Shown here: positions 23,564-31,706 of the stretch, piece by piece
How positions within the stretch are numbered: position 1 is the stretch's first letter
Layout: each line of letters opens with the position of its first letter
From: Chamaelirium japonicum
Taxonomy: Eukaryota; Streptophyta; Magnoliopsida; Liliales; Melanthiaceae
Reading direction: 5' to 3'
Length of the DNA stretch: 64,000 bases
NCBI GenBank assembly: GCA_947650365.1
Contig: OX393553.1
Coordinates: forward strand, 71,037,463 to 71,101,462
Made by a program: the position numbers and the translations under genes
Notes under the pieces: generated by a model
What the model was told of the DNA's origin: nothing
The model's input: only the letters and a program-made list of their open reading frames with translations
Database searches by the model: none

Positions 23564-23825
23564 GGGATACTCTTACTAATGAGCGATTACTAATGACAGT
23601 TACTAATGACGTCGACCGTCCGATCAAAAAAGATAGATTACTGAGATTAGTCTCAATCCCGTCACTTACAACAATTCAGTCCGCGCGAACCGATCCCCCC
23701 GATCTGCCTCTCTCCTCCGCGCGAATGAAGACCCCGATCTCCCGCTCTCTCCTTCGCATGAACGAGACCCCGATCGGAGCTCCGATCAGGCCCTGACCTC
23801 GGCGCGAGCAAGATCAGCTGCTCCT
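23564..23825. repeat. left terminal inverted repeat of the 8.1-kb MULE
   Basis: Pairs with 31430-31701. Three TTACTAATGA words lie within the first 50 bases, a likely transposase-binding array. It lacks the four or five outermost bases (GGGGA) present at the right end. Confidence 0.88.
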
Positions 23826-23932
23826 TTGTCCTCCCCCCACCTTGATCGGCACCCCGATGACGCCCTCTTACCCGATCGAAACCCTAATCTCCCCCGGCCT
23901 CCCTCTACCCCAATCGGAGACCTAATCGTGGC

Positions 23933-24229
23933 CTGCCTCCCTCTTCACTGGTTTCGATCGCGTGCGAGCTGTCCTCCGAGTCGGCCGATCGGAGAGGAAG
24001 AAGAGCAGCAGATCGGAGACCGTGCGAGCAGCTGCCTCCCTCTTCACTGGTTCCGATCGCTTGCGAGCTGTCCTCCGAGCCGGCCGATCGAAGAGGAAGA
24101 AGAGCAGCAGATCGGAGACGGTGCGAGCAGCTGCCTCCCTCTTCACTGGTTCCGATCGCGTTCGAGCTGTCCTCCGAGCCGGCTGATCGGAGAGGAAGAA
24201 GAGCATCAGATCGGAGACGGTGCGAGCAG
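23933..24229. repeat. 99-bp minisatellite, three copies
   Basis: Copies start CTGCCTCCCTCTTCACTGG at 23933, 24032 and 24131, exactly 99 bases apart, and are nearly identical. As 99 is a multiple of three, all frames stay open across it, which explains the 190-codon plus frame and the long minus frames here. There is no evidence that it is translated. Confidence 0.88.
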
Positions 24230-24239
24230 CTGCCTCTGC

Positions 24240-25340
24240 CTCTTCCTCCGGGTATTTTTCTTCGTGAAGAAAGAAAGAAACCATCATTCAATATTCAAAA
24301 AAATAAAAAATGGATTGAATGCTGAAATCATAGAATTGACAGAAAAATACAAACCAAATGAATTTTCCACCTCATTGCTGGAAATTAGCCTCTTGTGAGT
24401 ATTTCTTCTGTATATCGAGCAAAAATGAATGACATTATGCCTTTGAAAATCAAAGATCTCCCACACCAGCTATTTCTAATTCTAACCAACCTATCCCTTC
24501 TCTCATTTTACAAGAACTATGATAGGAACCAGCAACCCCCATAAAAAAAATTTTGAGAAAATTTTTCCAACAGATTGGTACTCCTGTCATTTACTCACAG
24601 AGAGATGTATGTAAGTAGTTGATGAATGTTTTACAAAGAGGCAATGATGATAGGTCCACTTTTAGCTGCCCTTAGTATTACTAAGTAACCACCCATGACT
24701 GGAAGGGGGGGGGGGGGCCTCGTGCTTCATCTGGATTGCGACCAAAAATTATTTTCAGTGCAATCTCATTCTCTCTCTCAACATCGCCGCCATCGAAGCT
24801 GCCTCTCACTTTGTTAGCGCTGCTCCGTGAATAAGGTTGGAGCAGCAGCATCATCGAACCGAATAGGGTTCTGATTTTGGGCTATTTACAACCATCTCCG
24901 GCGAGGAATTGCTGATGGGTGCTGAGGGGCACTCGTCTCCCGCTGTCTGTATGATATCTGCGGCATCTGGCGGACAGTTGAAGCTTTCATCCACGCTTTC
25001 CTTTACGTCGTCACGTTCATCCGGAGCGATCTTAGCGGGGTGGAATCACCCCGCTAACCTAGCCTCAATTTCCAGCTCATTGCATTCAATCTAAGAGGCA
25101 GAAAAAACCCTTCTATTATCTTATAAAAGTTATCCTAAAGGATAGGAAGTTGTTATTAGCTCTTAACCATGCATGGATGTATTTCTACCATGGTGATTAT
25201 TTTTGTGGTTTTGCTTAAGACAAGGTATAGAAATCTCATCTGATTGTTAGGCCTGATTTTATTTTTCTATATTACGTTGTTTCATGACAGTGGTGCCATA
25301 AGCTAAATCTGAAATCTTCAACAAGTGTGATTTTGATAGA
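24240..25340. other. 5' region of the FAR1-type transposase gene
   Basis: Mixed AT-rich and GC-rich DNA between the left terminus and the first exon. A G-run at 24706-24717 and a GC-rich block (24780-25090) could be leader exon or captured DNA. No coding frame that I can support. Confidence 0.4.
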
Positions 25341-25341
25341 A

Positions 25342-28990: not shown

Positions 28991-29068
28991 CTACTTCTGC
29001 TTCTGAGATTTGAGCTCCTGCACTTTCTCCTCTGTGCTTCTCAGGGCTTCTCCGTAGATGGTGATTAA
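28991..29068 (-). pseudogene. terminal-exon-like fragment of a host gene, minus strand
   Basis: On the minus strand, a pyrimidine-rich tract ending TTATTTTCACAG is followed by 25 codons (LITIYGEALRSTEEKVQELK then SQKQK) and TAG. A plausible 3' UTR continues to about 28850. The predicted end is a charged, possibly coiled C-terminus. It runs opposite to the transposase gene, which suggests capture of a host gene 3' end (Pack-MULE-like transduplication). Source gene not identified. Confidence 0.55.
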
Positions 29069-29099
29069 CTGTGAAAATAAGAGCAGGGAGGCTTAGTAC

Positions 29100-30980
29100 T
29101 TTGGCATCAAATGCTCACTATCAGGTGTGAGGACTTCTCCATTGATAAAGAGAAAAAATTAAATTGCACATAGTCCCATAAGAGTTTGGCTAATTACATG
29201 CATCCCCCCTTCAAAGGAATGATTAAATAAGTTGCCCTTAGCTTTTGAAATTTTGAGATGTACAGTGTCTTGGCTCAGCTAGCCATATCGCATGACAAAA
29301 TATTCTACAGTTTTTTCTGTCTTCTGAAAACATAAAAATGTTAGCATTTGGGGATGAAGATAGGGATGGCCTATTCTCTCCAATTAGTACATCCTTGAAA
29401 CTTCATCATCTCAATCTTTTCATCAATCTATACGTAGCTATGATACATCCATTTTTCTTTTTCAAAAAGTTTGAGCAAAAGATGGATGAATATCCAAAAT
29501 CTAGGAAGGAAGCATGGGCACTTCTCTATAGGAGGCGTGCCCGTGTCCGACACGTGGGGACACGCCAAGTCCCCAACACTGTGGACAGGCCTTGGATACG
29601 TGTAACACATTCAGTACGTGCCCATATTTTCTATTAAGTTTTATTATGTCGGATACTTTTCGGACATTTTACGGGAACCTTAAGGTGTGTGTAAAGTTTC
29701 CGATTTGATAATATAGACATCAATTACTTTTAAAACTCCTGTAAGTTTTGACTTAGACGGAACCGAAACCGTACCGATTTCGATAGATCTACTATTGAAT
29801 CGACCAATCTGAAGTCGGTTCAATTCGCCCGATTTTATTTTAAAGATGCGATCATGAACTGATCACCTTGAATGAAATTGTTTTTCCCTCCCCGACTTCC
29901 AAATTGTTTTTATCATTCAAAGTTATTTCAAAATTATGACCATAACAATTTGCATTAGCTATAATATTAAATGTATATCTCAAAATTTTGCACCAAATCA
30001 TGTTTTTATTCATAGTATCTTGATCATTAGATTGGTCAATAATTAAGATCCAAATGAGGTTGCCACAAAATAACTAGAAAAGAGTGGATCATGATTAAAG
30101 ATCCAAATGAGGTTGCCACAAAATAATTAAGATCACAATGACAAGCAAAGCCAAAACATTCAGACATGACATCATTAGAAGAATCCTAGTTTGCTGGAAC
30201 AGTTCGAGACCAAAGGAACTCTAAATTTATTTTTCATATATTATGTCGAAGTAATATGCAAAAAGAGGAAATGGAAAGGATGCTCTACAAGTGTGGTTAA
30301 TGCGCTATCGAGTGTTTATGCGCTATTCTTAGTGAGTGTTTATGCGCTATCGAGGTGGCTGTTAATCACGTGAAGGTTTCAAGTGGAGAACGAGGTGACA
30401 TGGCAGTCACCTGACCCTAGCGAACTCAAGATGAATTTCGATGGAGTGTGATAGAAGAGGTGCAACAAAATAAAGGCATGATTCACTGTGAGGGACAAAC
30501 CAAGATTTCCCCCACTACAAGTTTTGAGTTGAAGATGACTTTAGCTACATAATTGAGGAATTTCCTTAGTTTACTACTCTCTGTGAGTGCAAAATATTCG
30601 TGGAGAAACTCGGGGGAAGTACCATTACTCTCAGCAGTGACAATGTTAGTTAATCGGAGCCAAATCCTGGCAGAAATGCCGATCGAGCCTTAATCTCAGC
30701 AGTGACAATGTTAGTTAATCGGAGCTCCTCAGGGTTAATCGAAGACTCCTCGTGGTACAAGCCCTAATAGAAGTATCCGACATTGAACCACGACTTGAAT
30801 CCGATACGAAGAGGGAGCCCCCATCGTGGATGGAGGTCCCTGCTTGGTAGGTCCAATCAATTAATGAAACCAAAGGAAGGAGGAGGTTTGGCGGTAGAAA
30901 AGAAAGGGGAGGCGACCTACCTGCGATGGGGTCTTCTTCCTCTCTGGTCGGGTTTCATCCCAACCGTCTCTGATCTGCAG
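29100..30980. other. inner right part of the MULE, non-coding
   Basis: AT-rich with short direct repeats: GATCCAAATGAGGTTGCCAC at 30047 and 30102; CAGCAGTGACAATGTTAGTT at 30637 and 30697; GTTTATGCGCTAT repeated at 30315-30350. No supported gene. Confidence 0.4.
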
Positions 30981-30984
30981 CTGC

Positions 30985-31430
30985 TCTGATTAGGGTAGAG
31001 GGATGTCGGGGTAGAGTAGGGCTCCAATCGGCCGTCAAGGAAGAGAGAGAGGCAGCTGCTCCGATTAGGGTAGAGGGATGCCGGGGAGAGTAGGGCTTCG
31101 ATCGGCTGCTCGCGTTGGAGGAAAGAGAGAGAGGTAGCTCGCGTCGGAGGAGAGAGAGAGAGAGAGAGAGAGAGAGAGAGAGAGAGAGAGAGAGAGAGAG
31201 AGAGAGAGAGAGAGAGAGAGAGAGAGAGAAGAGAGAGAGAGAGAGAGAGAGAGAGAGAGAGAGAAAGAAAGAGAGAGAGAGAGAGAGAGAGGTAGCTCGC
31301 GTCGGAGGAGAGAGAGGCAGCTCGCGCGGAGGAGAGAGAGGCAGACGGGGTATCGATCGCGTGGAGGAGAGAGAGGCAGACGGGGTATCGATCGCGCGGA
31401 GGAGAGGAGCAGCTGATCTGCTCGCGTCGA
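30985..31430. repeat. GC/GA-rich subterminal repeats and (GA)n in the MULE
   Basis: A unit around TTAGGGTAGAGGGATG occurs twice (30994 and 31066). From 31141 to 31300 there is a nearly pure (GA)n tract with a few A insertions, then repeated GCAGACGGGGTATCGATCGC units. This is the subterminal region of the right end. Confidence 0.75.
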
Positions 31431-31706
31431 GGTCAGGGCAAGATCGGAGCTCCGATCAGGGTCTCGTTCACGTGGAGGAGAGAGAGGGAGATCGGGGTAT
31501 CGTTCACGCGGATGAGAGAGAGGGAGATCGGGGTCTTCATCCACGCGGAGGAGAGAGGCAGATCGGGGGGATCGGTTTGTGCGGACTGAATTGTTGTAAG
31601 TGACGGGATTGAGACTAATCTCAGTCGTCTATCTTTTTTGATCGGACGATCGACGTCATTAGTAACTGTCATTAGTAATCGCTCATTAGTAAGAGTATCC
31701 CTCCCC
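31430..31706. repeat. right terminal inverted repeat of the 8.1-kb MULE
   Basis: The reverse complement starts GGGGAGGGATACTCTTACTA and matches the left terminus for at least 200 bases with few changes. It contains an extra tandem unit of GAGAGAGAGGGAGATCGGGG compared with the left side. Confidence 0.88.

What the first reader, a model, noticed from the sequence alone, without database searches (positions are those of the whole stretch)
23564..31706. A FAR1-type MULE set in (TA)n shares its ends with a small (TA)n-flanked MITE: candidate source of transposase
The 8.1-kb element has inverted termini of 200 bases or more opening GGGATACTCTTACTAATGA with repeated TTACTAATGA words. The 373-bp element at 32383-32755 opens with the same words. 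Both lie in (TA)n with no other target duplication. Microsatellite-flanked elements of this look (rice Micron type, from memory) are usually seen only as small non-coding copies. Here a linked copy encodes a FAR1/FHY3-related transposase that keeps all three likely catalytic acids. That suggests a FAR1-type transposase with TA-microsatellite targeting.
Basis: partly seen in the sequence, partly recalled or inferred. Interest (0 to 1): 0.9.

Follow-up and report, generated by a model that had tools for sequence, protein, structure and literature searches.

The report
Jumping genes that target TA repeats
The window holds a broken member of a plant transposon family whose intact relatives elsewhere in the same genome carry a FAR1-type transposase and sit in runs of TATATA; such TA-targeting transposons are already known, but the phase of the TA runs suggests that these insert by the ordinary cut-and-paste step, a point on which published work disagrees.

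Summary
An 8.1-kb FAR1-type Mutator-like element (MULE; 23564-31706) and a 373-bp MITE (32383-32755) share termini, and both sit in (TA)n. In the window's own 1.52-Gb genome the shared 18-base terminus occurs 921 times; 808 of these have (TA)4 within 6 bases. The window's transposase gene is broken. A co-linear copy lies on C7, and four related elements of 9.0-9.6 kb with open transposase frames (two read as 739-aa ORFs) have related termini in TA at both ends. Single elements examined from two more distant FAR1-type lineages also sit in TA.

TA-targeting MULEs with Jittery-like transposases and MITEs are published, so this is a new member of a known kind. The useful new result is the phase of the TA tract. 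In 38 of 38 elements with intact ends the two flanks have opposite phase, as an odd (9-bp) duplication predicts; a copy outside TA has a perfect 9-bp duplication. An unrelated TA-flanked family behaves differently (16 of 19 pairs same phase). This favours ordinary cut-and-paste, with TA runs expanding later, over the published circle/recombination model.

The parts
23564..31706 (+). FAR1-type MULE, 8143 bp as it stands; left end lacks the first five bases (GGGGA) of the family terminus, right end complete
   Evidence: co-linear copy L056 on C7
23563..23775 (+). left terminal inverted repeat arm
   Evidence: 213 nt, 94% complementary to 31490-31702
31490..31706 (-). right terminal inverted repeat arm, with complete GGGGAGGGATACTC end
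25580..26374 (+). transposase gene, first open piece: FAR1 DNA-binding domain and start of MULE (DDE) domain; ends in TGA
26455..27705 (+). transposase gene, second open piece in another frame: rest of MULE domain, SWIM region with its histidine replaced by Y; closes before the zinc knuckle
   Evidence: compared by eye with intact copies
32383..32755 (.). 373-bp MITE with the same terminal module; right end has lost one G
23465..23563 (.). (TA)n left of the 8.1-kb element
31707..31838 (.). (TA)n right of the 8.1-kb element
32277..32382 (.). (TA)n left of the MITE
32756..32839 (.). (TA)n right of the MITE
23078..23464 (.). neighbouring TA-bounded unit of another family (GGGTCAGGTTC ends), opposite phase
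31839..32276 (.). neighbouring TA-bounded unit with mirrored (GA)14 next to both ends, same phase
32840..33239 (.). neighbouring TA-bounded unit (GGGCTGTTA end; ends not matched base for base), same phase
33320..33723 (.). neighbouring TA-bounded unit (GGGAATAGG ends), opposite phase
33869..34235 (.). neighbouring TA-bounded unit (GATCCAGTG ends), same phase; last of seven units joined by TA

Best explanation
The window element is a dead member of a family of Jittery/FAR1-type Mutator-like DNA transposons that insert into TA-rich sites. Related elements with open frames (9.0-9.6 kb) encode a transposase with FAR1 DNA-binding, MULE DDE and SWIM domains and a zinc-knuckle-like end. It most likely acts on a terminal module (GGGNAGGGATACTC followed by three TTAC words about 14 and 13 nt apart) shared by long elements and several MITE types, and so mobilises the MITEs in trans. 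Insertion is ordinary cut-and-paste with a 9-bp staggered cut, usually in a short TA-rich site; the long (TA)n tracts on both sides grow afterwards. Shown here: termini, TA flanks, open reading frames, phase pattern (odd duplication), and one 9-bp duplication outside TA. Inferred: that the odd length inside TA is 9, binding to the module, trans-mobilisation, and growth of the tracts after insertion.
For: 808 of 921 exact terminus matches have (TA)4 within 6 bases; the reversed control pattern gives 0. L056 on C7 is a co-linear copy (97.7% over 7.6 kb) with TA at both ends, opposite phase. Six full-length matches at 92-95% identity lie in stop-free frames of 787-826 aa: C2, C4, C5, C11, C12, C298; the C2, C4, C11 and C12 elements have both ends in TA. 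FAR1, MULE and SWIM pass Pfam cut-offs in L076 and L077, zinc knuckle just under its cut-off. L077 inverted repeats are 341 bp with one mismatch. dN/dS 0.21 between L077 and L076 and 0.14-0.15 between lineages where computable, one of these saturated. Phase: 31 of 31 strict pairs plus 4 plus 3 (list) opposite, 38 of 38. Phase does not follow the end type: the C/T-type end is A-phase in 13 and T-phase in 11 of the 24 strict pairs that have one. L018 outside TA: 9-bp duplication TTAGATCTT. Three related sites without the L066 element hold 10-12 bp of TA-like sequence against 163 and 149 nt when occupied. L087 and L088, from two more distant FAR1-type lineages, are TA-bounded with opposite phase, as is C5:35742288-35749521.
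Against: The long palindromic copy L031 has same-phase flanks, with an interrupted left tract. By a tract-based rule without the demand for intact ends, the focal segments that lack well-matched ends split 11 opposite to 14 same; listed, these are truncated, shifted or one-ended, and of nine with exactly one terminal base missing seven read same and two opposite. I explain the seven by in-register replacement of a terminal G, which is inference. The L066 empty-site homology on the left covers only 16-34 bases. The L018 flank search found no empty site. No transposition was observed, and MITE mobilisation by this transposase is inferred from shared ends. The strict sample is mostly from one chromosome (C1). 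Phase shows an odd length but cannot tell 9 from 7 or 11.
Confidence: 0.86

Rival explanations
1. Insertion by homologous recombination of circular intermediates carrying microsatellite filler into existing (TA)n tracts, with no staggered cut (the model put forward, as speculative, in PMC5907723).
For: No duplication is visible at sites in long (TA)n; units of different families are joined by (TA)n in arrays, as in that paper.
Against: Recombination between (TA) tracts has no evident reason to give opposite phase every time: 38 of 38 opposite. A 9-bp duplication occurs outside TA. Candidate empty sites have only a short TA stretch.
Confidence: 0.06
2. TA-dinucleotide targeting with a 2-bp TA duplication (Tc1/mariner-like), the ends only resembling MULEs.
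For: TA targets; another TA-flanked family in this genome shows the pattern this predicts, A-phase at both ends in 16 of 19 pairs.
Against: It predicts same phase at both ends; the focal family with intact ends gives 0 of 38. The encoded transposase is FAR1/MULE. L018 has 9 bp.
Confidence: 0.02
3. The long elements and MITEs share ends by descent only; the MITEs are moved by another transposase.
For: The 373-bp MITE and the 8.1-kb element look alike only near their ends (read by eye); other FAR1-type lineages are present.
Against: The two other lineages examined have different termini (GGGGTGGGATCGG, GGGTCGGGATCC); the three-word spacing is kept across long elements and MITEs (read by eye).
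Confidence: 0.15
4. The window element is a Pack-MULE-like chimera whose FAR1 gene is a captured host gene, not its own transposase.
For: FAR1/FHY3 host genes exist in plants (established knowledge); the window gene is broken.
Against: The gene lies between the same or related ends in L056, L076 and L077, and in the C4 and C12 elements by position, with TA at both ends, and L076 and L077 encode all transposase domains.
Confidence: 0.03

Closest known systems
MuTAnT / AutoMuTAnT, Medicago truncatula (PMC4486113; parts 1-2 of 4 read)
   Same: MULE in (TA)n with long inverted repeats opening in G runs; small copies plus a long one encoding a Jittery-like transposase; a minority of copies outside TA with 9-bp duplications; empty sites with about 9 TA repeats
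   Different: Other sequence; 833-aa, five-exon gene, described as mudrA-like. The authors report 9-bp duplications from the copies outside perfect TA and say that determination was impeded for most copies; here phase is used to infer an odd duplication inside TA
SaTar elements and autonomous SaTar-MULEs, guayule and rice, including Micron (PMC5907723; passages and section 19 read)
   Same: Non-nested, end-to-end arrays of unrelated MULE MITEs joined by microsatellites, with autonomous relatives; TIRs of rice Micron matched to an autonomous MULE
   Different: That paper suggests circles plus recombination because many flanks look inconsistent with cut-and-paste; the phase data here favour cut-and-paste
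Ac-mMITEs, pineapple (PMC8449440; passages read)
   Same: Abundant MITEs in (TA)n, clustered, with a minority carrying 9/10-bp duplications
   Different: No autonomous partner was found there
MiMs, carrot (PMC8227079; passages read)
   Same: MITE families in TA stretches, three with putative autonomous Mutator partners
   Different: States that the mode of propagation and the role of autonomous elements remain unclear
Jittery, maize, and the Jittery group 36 of MULEs (PMC6446971, PMC9569675; passages read)
   Same: FAR1 N-terminus, MULE DDE and SWIM; long inverted repeats
   Different: Jittery was found with a 9-bp duplication in an exon of bz, not described as TA-targeted in the passages seen; a direct sequence comparison could not be run here

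Membership tests
Mutator-like elements (MULE superfamily) | MULE/DDE transposase domain | tested here: met
   PF10551, E 2.4e-33 in L077 and L076; split over two pieces in the window
Mutator-like elements (MULE superfamily) | 8-11 bp target duplication | tested here: met
   L018: 9-bp TTAGATCTT, the one non-TA case with both ends seen; inside TA tracts an odd length is inferred from phase, 38 of 38
Mutator-like elements (MULE superfamily) | long terminal inverted repeats | tested here: met
   213 nt at 94% in the window; 341 bp with one mismatch in L077
Jittery/FAR1-type MULE clade | FAR1 domain N-terminal, SWIM (or CCHC) C-terminal | tested here: met
   definition from PMC6446971
Jittery/FAR1-type MULE clade | phylogenetic placement with Jittery | not testable with these tools
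   no plant transposase sequence library was at hand
TA-microsatellite-targeting MULEs (MuTAnT/SaTar/TAFT kind) | most copies flanked by (TA)n | tested here: met
   808 of 921 terminus matches
TA-microsatellite-targeting MULEs (MuTAnT/SaTar/TAFT kind) | empty sites consist of short TA | tested here: inconclusive
   L066: related sites L089-L091 have 10-12 bp of TA-like sequence, but left homology is only 16-34 bases; L018 search found no empty site
TA-microsatellite-targeting MULEs (MuTAnT/SaTar/TAFT kind) | end-to-end, non-nested arrays | tested here: met
   seven TA-joined units at 23078-34235, none seen inside another
Tc1/mariner or Stowaway (2-bp TA duplication) | same-phase TA flanks | tested here: not met
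   0 of 38 focal elements with intact ends

The most novel reading that the evidence does not exclude
Association with TA tracts is a property of a whole FAR1/Jittery-type transposase clade, not of one family: three lineages sampled in this genome (about 56-72% protein identity between them) do it, each with its own ends, by a normal 9-bp staggered cut into short TA-rich DNA. The tracts of 100 bp or more are then made by repair or replication slippage, so each insertion creates new targets and the arrays build themselves. The opposite-phase signature is a general way to read the parity of the duplication inside microsatellites.
Probability: 0.45. Interest if true: 0.65.

Novelty: new member of a known kind. 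Interest (0 to 1): 0.48.

Why it matters
TA-targeting MITEs are reported from rice, maize, pineapple, carrot, guayule and Medicago (as stated in the papers seen). A 2021 paper states that how they propagate, whether autonomous Mutators drive them and how they reach TA tracts are unclear (PMC8227079), and another suggested circles plus recombination (PMC5907723). The phase test is simple, needs only an assembly, and gives a clear answer for intact-ended copies here. FAR1-type elements with open frames and nearly identical inverted repeats offer concrete material for a transposition assay.

Tried and rejected
Considered and set aside: a captured host FAR1 gene (the gene recurs between the same or related ends in other copies), 2-bp TA targeting (phase), and circle recombination (phase). 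Looked at the right 3.7 kb of the window element for captured genes: only short frames, not searched further. Empty-site search with L018 flanks: 41 matches, two of them the locus itself, none spanning the junction as an empty site. With L066 flanks: 4 of 66 matches span the junction; three of the four were fetched. The GGGTCAGGATCGGATGACCC family could not be tested. Rows dropped from the strict phase count: 24 of 55 pairs (damaged terminal bases, interrupted or missing TA, or the non-TA copy); they are described in the report, including L031, which disagrees.
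Full report
OBSERVATION. Inverted arms of 213 nt (94%) bound 23563-31702, and the right terminus is complete to 31706. The terminal 18-mer occurs at both ends of the 8.1-kb element and at the left end of the 373-bp MITE, with two mismatches at the MITE's right end. All four outer flanks are (TA)n. Comparison with other copies shows the usual terminus is GGGNA followed by GGGATACTC; the window element's left end lacks those five bases and the MITE's right end lacks one G.

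THE WINDOW'S GENE. Two open pieces carry FAR1 and MULE domain matches. The gene is broken by an in-frame TGA (26372-26374) and a change of frame before 26455. The second piece closes before the zinc knuckle, and the SWIM histidine reads Y (compared by eye with the intact ORFs). The three acidic residues are present as letters, but this copy cannot be the source of transposase as it stands.

THE FAMILY IN ITS OWN GENOME. The window lies at G000:C5:71037463-71101462 in an assembly of 1.52 Gb and 3253 contigs. The 18-mer has 460 + 461 exact matches, and the reversed control pattern has none. With (TA)4 required within 6 bases the counts are 428 + 380, that is 808 of 921. A longer end typical of the FAR1 element has 18 matches. 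L056 (C7) is a co-linear copy, 97.7% over 7.6 kb, with TA on both sides; its gene has stops too (C7:24002464). L031 (C1) is 8.75 kb and is a giant palindrome: each arm matches the left 4.4 kb of the window element at 97%, so it carries two facing, broken transposase genes.

INTACT RELATIVES. A protein search with the 416-aa window piece scored 100 of 960 candidates. Apart from the window itself, six matches covering residues 1-415 at 92-95% identity lie in stop-free frames of 787-826 aa: C2, C4, C11, C12, C5:34905200 and C298; a seventh (C1:47313049, 91%) is stop-free over the match in a 495-aa frame, and the other full-length matches above 85% have one to four stops. Four of the six (C2, C4, C11, C12) have both ends found, in TA, with the related terminus GGGGAGGGATACTCTTACAAGTGAGC (ends also read, except the C4 left end). 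The C5:34905200 element had only its left end found and the C298 element neither end, in the stretches fetched. The C11 and C2 elements (L077, L076) encode 739-aa proteins with FAR1, MULE and SWIM domains above Pfam cut-offs and a zinc knuckle just below its cut-off. L077's inverted repeats are 341 bp with one mismatch, so it probably inserted recently. dN/dS is 0.21 between L077 and L076, 0.15 and 0.14 for these two against L087, and 0.14 between L087 and L088 with saturated dS; the L088 comparisons with L077 and L076 could not be computed (my own Nei-Gojobori script).

OTHER LINEAGES. L087 (C4; 885-aa intact ORF, 72% identical to L077) ends in GGGGTGGGATCGGTTGACAACCC, and L088 (C8; 779 aa, 57%) ends in GGGTCGGGATCCTGTGCC. 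Both have FAR1, MULE and SWIM domains and both sit in TA with opposite phase, the L088 left tract being only 10 nt. One element of each lineage was fetched. The L087-type terminus next to TA occurs 10 times genome-wide; nine of the ten lie within about 10 kb of a match, by comparing coordinates, and one further both-ended case, C5:35742288-35749521, has opposite phase.

PHASE OF THE TA TRACT. A duplication of odd length inside (TA)n must leave one flank ending in A and the other in T when both are read toward the element; an even one leaves the same base. Among 55 paired elements in the loci fetched by then and the window, 31 have complete termini on both ends and at least 8 perfect TA bases on each side. 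All 31 are opposite. Four further long elements (C2, C4, C12, C3177) and three further C1 elements in the list (108354200, 113246804, 128565144) are also opposite: 38 of 38. For the C4 left end and both C3177 ends only 6 TA bases were seen; the C3177 pair spans 20.6 kb and its gene has three stops. Which end carries A is free: the C/T-type end has A in 13 and T in 11 of the 24 strict pairs that have one (counted). Against or unclear: of the 24 dropped pairs, L022 (1501-1878), L048 and L053 also read opposite under a looser rule and L031 reads same. By a plain tract-to-tract rule, focal segments with well-matched ends opening in G or C are 30 opposite to 0 same, but the rest are 11 to 14. The rest include one-ended segments and damaged termini; among nine with exactly one terminal base missing, seven read same and two (L030, L040) opposite, as expected for most if a terminal G was replaced in register by a TA base. 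That explanation is inference. Controls: TA-bounded segments of other sequence without matching ends give 17 opposite to 29 same; with matching ends 14 to 5. An unrelated palindromic family of about 150 bp (GGGGCATGCTATAATG ends, 1376 + 1409 TA-flanked matches) is A-phase in 94 of the first 100 ends listed, and its pairs within 200 bp in that list are 16 A/A, 3 T/A, 0 T/T (counted by hand), as a TA-dinucleotide target would give. The test can therefore give a different answer, and does.

TARGET DUPLICATION AND EMPTY SITES. L018 lies outside TA and has TTAGATCTT on both sides; the flank search shows the left and right matches overlapping by exactly 9 bases. For L066, 4 of 66 matches to the joined flanks span the junction. 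Three were fetched (L089, L090, L091; matches of 90%, 91% and 85%): they have TATATATCTGTA, TATATATCTATA or TATATATATA where the occupied site has 163 and 149 nt of TA. Their matches reach only 16-34 bases into the left flank, so I treat this as supportive only.

MECHANISM. The ends of long elements and of several MITE types keep one layout: GGGNAGGGATACTC, then three TTAC words 14 and 13 nt apart (14 and 12 in one type), read by eye. The best-supported model is that a FAR1-type transposase recognises this module, moves long and short copies alike by cut-and-paste with a 9-bp stagger into TA-rich DNA, and that the TA tracts expand later. The expansion idea was proposed earlier for maize TAFT elements, as cited in PMC5907723; the original paper was not read. 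The window itself shows the consequence: seven TA-joined units at 23078-34235 with none seen inside another.

WHAT IS KNOWN. MuTAnT (parts 1-2 of 4 read), SaTar (passages and one section), pineapple (passages) and carrot (passages) already describe TA-targeting MULEs and MITEs. MuTAnT's authors already inferred 9-bp duplications from copies outside perfect TA. AutoMuTAnT is Jittery-like, and Jittery carries a FAR1 domain (PMC9569675, passages; PMC6446971, passages). The system is thus a known kind. I did not find the phase argument in the papers and passages seen or in the listings, which cover an open-licence library only.

LIMITS. The strict sample is mostly one chromosome and was drawn from copies with at least one exact 18-mer end, their neighbours in the fetched stretches, and chosen long copies. 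No activity was measured, and no phylogeny with named plant transposases could be made.

Noticed in passing
L065:60-209, L027:1029-1178, L016:2393-2543; a look-alike at window 16960-17107: A palindromic family of about 150 bp (GGGGCATGCTATAATG ends) has 2785 TA-flanked end matches and, in the first 100 listed, a nearly fixed A-phase, which suggests a TA-dinucleotide target unlike the MULE MITEs. The window look-alike was judged by eye.
   Followed up: partly
L031 (G000:C1:61810700-61820000): An 8.75-kb element that is a giant palindrome with two facing broken transposase genes, each arm 97% identical to the left half of the window element; its flanks have the same TA phase, against the rule.
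   Followed up: partly
window 31839-32276; 16906-16959; 17171-17212: (GA)n runs lie directly between (TA)n and element ends, in one case mirrored on both sides, so they are not a direct target duplication; similar (AG)n runs recur in many fetched loci.
   Followed up: no
L036 (G000:C1:47304600-47305700) and the match at C1:47313049-47314293: Another MITE of the 373-bp type lies one TA tract away from a long-element end of the C11 type, with a transposase match 7.5 kb further on, repeating the arrangement seen in the window.
   Followed up: no
L061:1143-1164: A 765-bp derivative whose right flank is a short (CA)n run followed by (TA)n, possibly a mutated TA tract.
   Followed up: no
G000, 960 first-look candidates: FAR1-type transposase matches are very numerous in this genome; the 100 scored fall into identity groups near 90%, 70% and 52% to the window piece.
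   Followed up: partly
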